Of a DNA stretch of 64,000 nt, positions 42,540-44,324 are shown in pieces. This DNA is from Bradyrhizobium sp. AZCC 1721 (lineage in GTDB: Bacteria; Pseudomonadota; Alphaproteobacteria; Rhizobiales; Xanthobacteraceae): positions 124,001-188,000 of the forward strand of contig NZ_JAZHSB010000001.1 of the NCBI RefSeq assembly GCF_036924715.1, given 5' to 3'. The first letter of the stretch is position 1; every line of letters starts with the position of its first letter. A model generated the notes under the pieces. That model did not search any database. It was not told the origin of the DNA and was given only the letters and a program-made list of their open reading frames with translations. The position numbers and the translations under genes were made by a program.

Positions 42540-42877
42540 GACACGCTACTCGCTCACCATAAGTCCGCGACATGGGAACTATGGTTGGCAGAGGGTAAAG
42601 GAAACTAGTTACCGCCGCGTTGACGCGGGTTGTTTTTGCGTGGCTCAGCATCTTTGGTGCGAGTGAGGCGAAGCGGGCTGGCGGGCGAACGACGTGGTGG
42701 GATGTCACACCCCGCGAAGGCGCGGTACTCAGTACGCTGCGGCCCATCCACGTCATTGCGAGCGGAGCGAAGCAATCCATCTCTGCGCGCATGTGGTGAC
42801 GATGGATTGCTTCGCTCCGCTCGCAAGGACGGGAAGATAGCGACACACACACCACTGTCGTCCCCCGCGAAGGCGGG
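42540..42877. other. repeat-rich gap before the IS element
   Basis: Non-coding. It holds a partial repeat (CCCCGCGAAGGCG, GTACGCTGCGGCCCATCC at 42708-42750), the 30-bp inverted repeat at 42751-42831, and the left part of the palindrome split by the IS110 element (42857-42877). Open frames here read through repeats and are not supported as genes. Confidence 0.6.
42751..42831. repeat. 81-bp inverted repeat
   Basis: A 30-bp arm at 42751-42780 (CGTCATTGCGAGCGGAGCGA onward) is mirrored at 42802-42831 with one mismatch, over a 21-base centre. This CGTCATTGCGAGC element is a common alphaproteobacterial intergenic repeat. Confidence 0.8.
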
Positions 42878-43020
42878 ATCTACCGTGATGTTCGTCAAGA
42901 GGTCGATCATGGGCGAGAGTGCGGCATCGTGCTCGCCGGTCAAGGCGACCGCTGCGCGGCGGCGATGCCGGCCTTGACCGGCTGCGCTCGCTGCCGCGTT
43001 GGCTTGCCATGATCGAAGGC

Positions 43021-43998
43021 TCATGCCGCAGGCCTGGCTGCGTGTCTCCAATCTGATCGGTCACGGATCATGGCGTTGAGCGTCACCAGCATTTTGCGCA
43101 TGACGGCGGTGAGCGCGACCTTGCCCAGGCGATGATTGTCATCGACCAGATGTCGGTAGAAGGCCTTCATGACCGGATTGTGCTGGATCGCGCTGCGGGC
43201 GCCGTTGAAGAGCACTTTGCGCACGCTGGAGCGGCCATGACCAATGGACGCATGCCCGTGCTGCTTGCCGCTGTCGCGCGTGTGCGGGGCAAGGCCGCAA
43301 AGGGCCGCGATTTTCTTGCCTGACAGATGTCCGAGTTCCGGCAGGTCCGCGATCAATGTTTCCGCGATGGCGGGGCCGACACCGCAGAAGGTTTGCAGCC
43401 GCCGGCTGGTCTCGGCATGCGCGGAGCTTGCGATGCGTTCGGCGATGGCCTTGTCGACCGTAGCGAGTGAACGCTCAAGGGCGGCAATGACCGCCCGCAG
43501 GCTCTTGCGCACAATGGCGCTGTCTGCCACGTCGCAGCGGCAGGTCTCGGCATGCAGCAGAGCCTGTAACTGCCGGCGCCGCGATGCGAGTTCACGTAAG
43601 ACCTCATCGGCCTCTGGAACCGACTCGATGTCGCGGCGAGCGAGCTCCTCGGCGGCAAAGTCGGCCAACAATTTGGCGTCGATGCGGTCCGTCTTGGCCT
43701 TGATGCCACGCCGCCTGCGATAGGCGACGACTTCGTTCGGGTGCACCTGCTTGAAGGCGACCTTCGCGCGGCGGAGACACCGTCGCAGAAGCCGCTCATA
43801 GCCGCCCGTCGGCTCGAACGCGACCAGGCCGATCGAGCCGGCCCCGATCTGCATAAACCAAGCGTCAATCGCTCGCTCACTGTTCGCGATCCGCTTGACC
43901 CGACTGTCACCCGCGATCGCAATGTCGATCCACTCCTTGGCAACGTCCACCCCGATCACCATCTTGTCCATGTGGCTGTTCTCCGACAGAATATGCAT
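43021..43998 (-). CDS. IS110-family transposase (DEDD recombinase)
   Basis: Up to 325 residues, apparently intact. The N-terminal RuvC-like DEDD domain shows VIGVDVAKEWIDIA, AFEPTGGYE and KTDRIDAKLLADFA. The C-terminal Transposase_20 domain shows FCGVGPAIAETLIADLPELG and IGHGRSSVRKVLF with the serine proposed to be catalytic. The likely start is MDKMVIGVD (43971) or MVIGVD (43962); the longest start is 43998. It should act with the bridge RNA encoded just upstream. Confidence 0.92.
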   Translation of the reverse strand: MHILSENSHMDKMVIGVDVAKEWIDIAIAGDSRVKRIANSERAIDAWFMQIGAGSIGLVAFEPTGGYERLLRRCLRRAKVAFKQVHPNEVVAYRRRRGIKAKTDRIDAKLLADFAAEELARRDIESVPEADEVLRELASRRRQLQALLHAETCRCDVADSAIVRKSLRAVIAALERSLATVDKAIAERIASSAHAETSRRLQTFCGVGPAIAETLIADLPELGHLSGKKIAALCGLAPHTRDSGKQHGHASIGHGRSSVRKVLFNGARSAIQHNPVMKAFYRHLVDDNHRLGKVALTAVMRKMLVTLNAMIRDRSDWRHAARPAA

Positions 43999-44163
43999 CT
44001 GGTCGGCACGCCGGATTGCAATGCGGGCTCAGGCCCTCTCTACCGTGCGCGTGTCAGACCGTAACGCCGGCGGTCCTAAGATTCCCACGGTCTTGCAGGA
44101 CCTGACCAGTACTCGAGGGGCCGCCGGCGCCCCATCCAACAGGATGGCGACGCCATCATGCAA
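43999..44163 (-). ncRNA. candidate IS110 bridge RNA
   Basis: The 165-bp non-coding 5' region of the element, in transposase sense. A 5' hairpin (44132-44147, CCATCC / GGATGG) is followed by segments matching the target: GUACUGG (44112-44106) equals the target left of the core, and GUGGGA (44088-44083) can pair with TCCCGC right of it (one G-U). A hairpin GUC-CUGCAA-GAC lies between. Next come CACGGUAGA (44047-44039), identical to the element's right end plus core, and UGCAAUC (44020-44014), complementary to its left end plus core, with hairpin GGGC-CUGA-GCCC between. Order and polarity match the IS621 target- and donor-binding loops. Transcript ends are not determined. Confidence 0.78.
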
Positions 44164-44164
44164 T

Positions 44165-44324
44165 CCAGTACGCTGCGGCTTATCGGTTCTATCACCGGCG
44201 TCTCTGGGTCGCCCGGTCAAGCCGGGCGATGACGACTGAGTATGAGGAGCCGATCTCGCGACGCGTTGCGCCCGACCTGCTCTCAACTGTCGAGATCATC
44301 ACGCAGGCTGTGCCCGGCCGCGCG
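44165..44324. repeat. right part of the split palindromic repeat, and flank
   Basis: Holds CCAGTACGCTGCGGC, CACCGGCGTCTCTGGG, and a perfect hairpin CGCCCGG / CCGGGCG (44210-44228, loop TCAAG) ending GATGACGAC at 44234. After that about 90 bases show nothing recognisable before the small ORF. Confidence 0.65.

What the first reader, a model, noticed from the sequence alone, without database searches (positions are those of the whole stretch)
43999..44165. IS110 element with a readable bridge RNA: all four guide segments match its own ends and insertion site
In transposase sense, the 5' non-coding region holds, in order, a 5' hairpin, a target left-guide GUACUGG (44112-44106, same as the target left of the core), a target right-guide GUGGGA (44088-44083, pairs with TCCCGC in the other flank with one G-U), a donor left-guide CACGGUAGA (44047-44039, nine of nine with the element end plus core), and a donor right-guide UGCAAUC (44020-44014, complementary to the other end plus core). 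Short hairpins separate the guides of each pair (GUC-CUGCAA-GAC and GGGC-CUGA-GCCC). That is the IS621 bridge-RNA layout. A 9-base and a 7-base donor match plus a 7-base target match in the right order is unlikely by chance. The core appears to be GA (or GAT) on the transposase strand, unlike CT in IS621.
Basis: partly seen in the sequence, partly recalled or inferred. Interest (0 to 1): 0.93.

Follow-up and report, generated by a model that had tools for sequence, protein, structure and literature searches.

The report
RNA-guided jumping gene targeting genome repeats
This is a small bacterial jumping gene of the IS110 family whose non-coding end carries four short guide segments that match its own ends and the places where its nine copies sit, so it is predicted to make a bridge RNA that picks its landing sites, and its ends meet those sites at the letters AT instead of the textbook CT.

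Summary
Confirmed with corrections. The element is 1,285 bp (44162..42878, minus strand) in a Bradyrhizobium-like chromosome. It encodes a DEDD/Ser IS110 recombinase and a 164-nt upstream region with the IS621 bridge-RNA layout. Nine near-identical copies all sit at GTACTGG-(A/G)T-YYC: eight in REP-like repeats, one near the end of an unrelated gene. Guides co-vary with targets and donors in ten related elements. Among REP-context sites with a matching left half, 0 of 20 with a purine after the core and then CC are filled, against 8 of 15 with a pyrimidine (post hoc). Positions described as handshake guides in IS621 are complementary here too. New lead: all 10 AT-core elements have His where IS621 has Asn84, which reads the first core base; all 18 CT-core relatives keep Asn. 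AT elements form one clade, so this is one switch and untested. Not shown: the RNA itself; unconstrained folding does not give the bridge shape. Verdict: a genuine bridge-RNA IS110 with an AT-core variant that makes core-base recognition testable.

The parts
42878..44162 (-). IS110 element, 1285 bp, counted from the first base after the left core to the last base of the right core
   Evidence: Nine copies share exactly this stretch and then diverge
44165..44171 (-). left target GTACTGG (flank, positions 1-7)
   Evidence: 9 of 9 copies
44163..44164 (-). left core AT (positions 8-9)
   Evidence: AT in 8 of 9 copies, GT in L017
44155..44160 (-). -10-like CATGAT in the left end
   Evidence: 17 bases from the RE TTGACG across the circle junction; sequence reading only
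44132..44147 (-). 5' stem-loop CCAUCC-UGUU-GGAUGG
   Evidence: constrained fold; CCUUCC/GGAAGG in G061 and G105
44065..44129 (-). target-binding module, closed by stem CGCCGGCGG/CCGCCGGCG
44106..44112 (-). left target guide GUACUGG
   Evidence: identical to the left target of all nine copies
44089..44102 (-). hairpin GGUC-CUGCAA-GACC between LTG and RTG
44081..44088 (-). right target guide GUGGGA plus core complement AU
   Evidence: anchored by AUCU, which is invariant in all 9 rows of A2; pairing scored
44079..44080 (-). target-loop handshake guide CU, complementary to donor positions 7,6 (G,A)
44001..44060 (-). donor-binding module, stems GGUC/GACC and CACGC/GCGUG
44039..44047 (-). left donor guide CACGGUAGA
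   Evidence: identical to the right end plus first core base; LD 7-mer found once in the region in 10 of 10 AT-core elements
44025..44036 (-). hairpin GGGC-CUGA-GCCC between LDG and RDG
44015..44020 (-). right donor guide UGCA plus core complement AU
   Evidence: complementary to AT-TGCA at the left end
44013..44014 (-). donor-loop handshake guide CC, complementary to target positions 7,6 (G,G)
43021..43998 (-). IS110 recombinase ORF; start more likely at 43971 (316 aa) behind GGAG 43984-43981
   Evidence: Pfam PF01548 and PF02371, NCBIfam NF033542; 316-aa relatives; the start is inferred
42893..42898 (-). -35-like TTGACG in the right end
   Evidence: TTGAC 21 bases before the core end in 23 of 24 distinct right ends that were found by a donor motif
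42880..42886 (-). left donor ACGGTAG (right end of the element)
42878..42879 (-). right core AT
   Evidence: AT in 9 of 9 copies
42872..42877 (-). right target CCCGCC (flank, positions 10-15)

Best explanation
This is an IS110-family insertion sequence whose upstream non-coding end is predicted to be transcribed from its circular form as a bridge RNA that would hold target and donor DNA side by side for its recombinase. Shown by sequence: four guides in IS621 order, nine copies at one target motif, and guides that change with target and donor in relatives. Inferred: after excision the right-end TTGACG and left-end CATGAT come together, 17 bases apart, as a promoter; the RNA folds into a 5' hairpin, a target loop and a donor loop. 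[quoted passage not shown] RTG GUGGGA-AU pairs the top strand of the core and right target; [quoted passage not shown] The recombinase then exchanges top strands behind the AT core, helped by handshake letters CU (to donor G7, A6) and CC (to target G7, G6). The target lies mostly in REP-like repeats, so insertion mostly spares genes. The enzyme likely reads the first core base with His at the position of IS621 Asn84.
For: Recombinase family and homology to IS621, catalytic residues aligned. Nine near-identical copies with one target motif; one copy (L018) lies four codons before the stop of a hydrolase-like ORF, without REP-like left context, at GTACTGG-AT-TTCC. Shuffle control for LTG, LDG and RDG. 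Cognate LTG matches 6.07 of 7 against 3.74 for non-cognate pairs (28 and 80 comparisons); RTG 4.93 of 6 against 3.07 (29 and 88); near-copies are counted, so the comparisons are not independent. Of 120 assignments of five guide sets to five targets only the true one reaches 57; next 53. RTG position 10 is Watson-Crick in 9 of 10 elements, with all four letters used. Donor position 5 is T, G or A, and LDG follows in 10 of 10. Own genome: pyrimidines at 10-12 in 9 of 9 filled and 12 of 83 empty half-matching sites, p = 3e-7, post hoc. TTGAC at one offset in 23 of 24 distinct motif-found right ends. IS621 mechanism from passages and sections 5 and 12 of PMC11208160 and passages of PMC11208158.
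Against: No RNA data. The unconstrained fold is not the bridge fold, z = -1.48, 18 of 200 shuffles as good; keeping guides unpaired costs 7.6 to 18.7 kcal/mol in seven elements, and the full three-module shape then appears in five of seven. No Rfam match. The window element is the one exception at RTG position 10 (A opposite C in 7 of 9 copies), and its RTG pairs its own target at 3 of 6 positions, against 3, 4, 4 and 5 for the four foreign targets. The G776 LTG matches its own target at only 5 of 7, no better than it matches the G195 target. The window LTG does not pair with the core at all, unlike IS621. The predefined RTG test in the own genome is weak (8 of 9 filled, 39 of 83 empty, p = 0.018; within REP context p = 0.14). 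Handshake letters are invariant in this clade, so they carry no covariation signal.
Confidence: 0.93

Rival explanations
1. The recombinase itself reads the target as a DNA-binding protein, and the guide matches are relics or chance.
For: Only a few bases are matched on the right side in the window copy.
Against: Three guide words together are rare in shuffles; guides and targets change together across ten elements; donor variants at position 5 are copied in the LDG.
Confidence: 0.03
2. The copies spread by homologous recombination or duplication of REP-flanked segments, so the common site reflects shared flanks and not repeated targeting.
For: Eight of nine copies lie in similar REP-like repeats; L014 and L016 share 461 bp of flank at 84%.
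Against: The other long flanks gave no match beyond one 125-bp piece at 76%; L018 lacks REP-like context; the copies are near-identical while the L014/L016 flanks differ by 16%.
Confidence: 0.03
3. The upstream region is mainly an untranslated leader or small RNA that regulates transposase expression, as reported for ISPpu9, rather than a guide.
For: ISPpu9, also in REPs, has two regulatory small RNAs (start of abstract in a listing, PMC8450116).
Against: Regulation alone does not explain matches to target and donor that co-vary. Both roles could coexist.
Confidence: 0.05

Closest known systems
IS621 of E. coli (IS110 group; PDB 8wt6)
   Same: DEDD plus Ser recombinase, upstream bridge RNA with LTG-RTG-LDG-RDG order, -35-like box in RE and -10-like box in LE, REP target, T at core position 9
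   Different: AT core, not CT; His and Pro where IS621 has Asn84 and Ala61; LTG does not pair with the core; RTG could pair up to six positions beyond the core, against two (five if extended) for IS621
ISCro4 (PDB 9t56)
   Same: solved IS110-family transposase, sequence relative
   Different: its RNA and core were not examined here
ISPpu9, ISPpu10, ISPa11, ISRm19 (IS110 elements in REPs; PMC1525189)
   Same: IS110 elements inserted in REP sequences
   Different: other hosts and REPs; that paper's main text does not mention Bradyrhizobium
ISEc21 and seekRNA (PMC11187229, passages)
   Same: IS110-family upstream non-coding region supplies a guide RNA with a part complementary to each target strand
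   Different: element sequence not compared here
CT-core IS110 relatives in the same family and order (for example G272, G287, G118)
   Same: same gene layout, TTGAC at the same offset
   Different: CT core, Asn84, Ala61

Membership tests
IS110 family, IS110 group | DEDD RuvC-like domain PF01548 and PF02371 domain with catalytic Ser | tested here: met
   residues aligned to IS621 D11, E60, D102, D105 and the Ser241 motif
IS110 family, IS110 group | long non-coding region upstream of the recombinase (downstream in IS1111) | tested here: met
   164 nt upstream holding all guides
IS110 family, IS110 group | no long sub-terminal inverted repeats (7-17 bp in IS1111) | not tested
   no search for sub-terminal repeats was made
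IS621-type bridge RNA | LTG, RTG, LDG, RDG in order, matching target and donor | tested here: met
   RTG weak in the window copy
IS621-type bridge RNA | core included in all four pairings | tested here: not met
   RTG and RDG pair both core bases, LDG the first, LTG neither in this element (G161 LTG pairs both)
IS621-type bridge RNA | fold with 5' hairpin and two internal loops | tested here: inconclusive
   only under constraint; free fold differs; 7 of 32 hand-assigned pairs have changes on both sides, 1 of 160 cells broken
IS621-type bridge RNA | guides co-vary with target and donor across relatives | tested here: met
IS621-type bridge RNA | promoter formed at the RE-LE junction | tested here: inconclusive
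   -35-like TTGAC at one offset in 23 of 24 distinct motif-found REs; activity untested
IS621-type bridge RNA | RNA expressed and bound by the recombinase | not testable with these tools
   needs RNA-seq and binding assays
IS621 and close orthologues | CT core | tested here: not met
   AT at both ends of the window element; AT in the 10 elements of its clade

The most novel reading that the evidence does not exclude
A natural core code: in bridge recombinases the residue at IS621 position 84 sets the first base of the core, Asn for C and His for A, and this AT-core clade switched by changing that residue together with the core letters in both RNA loops and both DNA partners.
Probability: 0.4. 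Interest if true: 0.75.

Novelty: new variant of a known kind. Interest (0 to 1): 0.55.

Why it matters
Bridge recombinases are being developed as programmable DNA-insertion tools, and the core is a part that the RNA alone does not freely set: non-CT cores worked less well with IS621 (PMC11208160, passage). A natural AT-core clade, with a conserved residue change at the contact that reads the first core base, points to one or two substitutions to test. The nine insertions also act as a natural specificity assay: the first base right of the core separates filled from empty REPs (post hoc).

Tried and rejected
A bulged RTG adenine would rescue C at position 10; it cannot be told from a tolerated A-C mismatch here. 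Strict Watson-Crick at position 10 (T only) does not separate filled from empty sites (2 of 9 against 7 of 83, p = 0.21). Core AT against GT preference: not significant (A at position 8 in 8 of 9 filled and 67 of 83 empty, p = 0.47). Residue 61 as the core determinant: weaker, because L188 has Pro61 with Asn84 and a right end reading CT; its left end could not be confirmed, so it was dropped. For the residue count, cores were recognised by end motifs (TTGCATG, ATCGTAAG or CTTGTA at the left; ACGGNAG-NT, ACAGTCG-NT or the TTGAC offset at the right), which favours these end types; rows whose core was not read at both ends were dropped (G102, G377, L030-L038, L172, L174, L176, L177, L180-L190, L193-L196, L199-L202), and further copies from one genome were not counted. 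first printed '0 of 59' because I had entered a wrong offset; its table gives the true offset, 21. That table holds the 59 loci (24 distinct right ends) in which the donor motif was found; loci without it (among them G102 and G377) were skipped; the one miss is L031. A covariance model was not built: the five-row alignment misplaces hairpins, so stems were listed by hand. Genome contigs and plasmids gave only distant relatives. Proteins fetched were only looked at.

Full report
What is there. The minus strand of 44162..42878 is a 1,285-bp IS110 element. Its recombinase ORF (43998..43021; more likely start 43971, behind GGAG) matches PF01548 and PF02371, the NCBIfam RNA-guided IS110 model above its cut-off (172.7 against 140 bits), and the solved IS621 recombinase at E = 3e-20. 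The IS621 catalytic residues D11, E60, D102, D105 and the Ser241 motif are all aligned. In the genus the element is rare: 2 of 265 genomes, the own one included, at E <= 1e-80.

Copies and target. The own genome holds nine copies. They differ only by one base in L016 and by the left core base in L017. All nine read GTACTGG-(A/G)T at the left and AT at the right end. Eight have REP-like left context. L018 lies four codons before the stop of a hydrolase-like ORF, at GTACTGG-AT-TTCC (the hydrolase label is my reading, not a search). Long flanks gave no match except L014/L016 (461 bp at 84%) and one 125-bp piece at 76%, so most insertions look independent.

Guides. LTG GUACUGG, RTG GUGGGA-AU, LDG CACGGUAGA and RDG UGCA-AU lie in IS621 order, with hairpins between the members of each pair. 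In 20,000 dinucleotide shuffles two or more of the LTG, LDG and RDG words occurred together once (RTG not tested there). With the core read as AT, the letters after RTG (CU) are complementary to donor positions 7 and 6 (G, A), and those after RDG (CC) to target positions 7 and 6 (G, G): the places of the handshake guides of IS621 (PMC11208158, passages). These letters are invariant across the clade, so they fit but do not test.

Covariation. Ten AT-core elements from ten genomes were read: G000, G161, G195, G061, G105, G314, G298, G422, G415 (left target cut by the contig end) and G776. G105 has a second copy whose left core reads GT or has lost a base; it was kept in the matrix. Among the first nine elements, cognate LTG matches average 6.07 of 7 against 3.74, and RTG 4.93 of 6 against 3.07; near-copies are counted. 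For five distinct guide sets and targets, the true assignment is the single best of 120 (57; next 53; mean 39.4). Within that matrix the window RTG does not prefer its own target (3 of 6, against 3, 4, 4, 5), and the G776 LTG fits its own target no better than that of G195 (5 of 7 each). RTG position 10 is Watson-Crick in 9 of 10 elements, using all four letters. The exception is the window element, A opposite C, although two of its nine copies (L015, L018) have T. The donor 7-mer occurs once in the upstream region in 10 of 10 elements, including the variants ACGGGAG (G195) and ACGGAAG (G776).

A natural specificity assay. The genome has 92 GTACTGGRT sites, 9 filled and 83 empty (letters). The predefined RTG score (3 or more of positions 10-13) holds in 8 of 9 filled and 39 of 83 empty sites, p = 0.018, and is not significant within REP context (7 of 8 and 26 of 43, p = 0.14). 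A post hoc rule, pyrimidines at 10-12, holds in 9 of 9 and 12 of 83, p = 3e-7. In REP context, sites with a pyrimidine at 10 followed by CC are filled in 7 of 11 with AT core and 1 of 4 with GT core; sites with a purine at 10 followed by CC are filled in 0 of 20. C at position 10 is not a pair with the RTG adenine, so either A-C is tolerated or that adenine flips out.

Structure. The free fold is not a bridge RNA. With guides kept unpaired, the 5' hairpin, target loop and donor loop form together in G000, G161, G195, G061 and G105, and not in G314 and G415; the constraint costs 7.6 to 18.7 kcal/mol. In hand-assigned stems of the five, 7 of 32 pairs change on both sides and 1 of 160 cells is broken. 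Rfam has no match. Expression is untested; a -35-like TTGAC sits 21 bases before the core end in 23 of the 24 distinct right ends in which the donor motif was found, as expected for a junction promoter like that of IS621 (PMC11208160, section 5).

Core and residue 84. In IS621, Asn84 reads the bottom-strand partner of the first core base, and the Ala61 main chain contacts the guide base there (PMC11208158, passage). Here all 10 AT-core elements have His at 84 and Pro or Arg at 61; all 18 CT-core elements read at both ends have Asn and Ala (ends; residues; one locus per genome; cores recognised by end motifs, rows with unclear ends dropped). In the tree (9 AT-core and 13 CT-core rows, with a long-branch warning for IS621 and L031) each set is one side of a branch, support 100/99. 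This is therefore one evolutionary switch, a correlation and not a test.

Known and new. Bridge-RNA IS110 elements (PMC11208160, sections 5 and 12 and passages), guide RNA in IS110/IS1111 elements (PMC11187229, passages) and REP targeting by IS110 elements (PMC1525189, passages) are known. An IS110 element of Bradyrhizobium in REPs did not turn up: 'Bradyrhizobium, IS110, repetitive extragenic palindromic' gave no paper, and 'Bradyrhizobium, IS110, insertion sequence' gave 12, seen as a listing only. 'IS110, core dinucleotide, recombinase' gave only the two IS621 papers. Most subscription papers, and ISfinder, are not covered, so AT-core members may be catalogued elsewhere.

Noticed in passing
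42982-42971 and 42946-42935: Inverted repeat GCCGGTCAAGGC/GCCTTGACCGGC in the right end, without a T run; also in G161 and, with changes, in G105, but not seen in the printed right end of G195.
   Followed up: no
L017 (G000:C1:1002980-1007709): Left core GT, right core AT: what strand exchange behind the core would leave if the target core was GT; a later mutation is not excluded.
   Followed up: partly
L029 (G161): 85% relative at the same target whose LTG (UACUGGAU) pairs with both core bases; the window element has UC there and is still present in nine copies.
   Followed up: partly
42780-42690: Further repeat copies to the right of the element, including a near-REP with GTACTGAGTACCGCG.
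   Followed up: no
L186, L189, L200: More distant IS110 relatives with Asp or Glu at the Asn84 position; cores not determined. They could test the core idea.
   Followed up: no
L084-L086, L088, L089-L091 (G102, G377): IS110 elements in other repeats, with right ends AACAGT or TACAGT and no TTGAC in the stretch printed; the core is unclear.
   Followed up: partly
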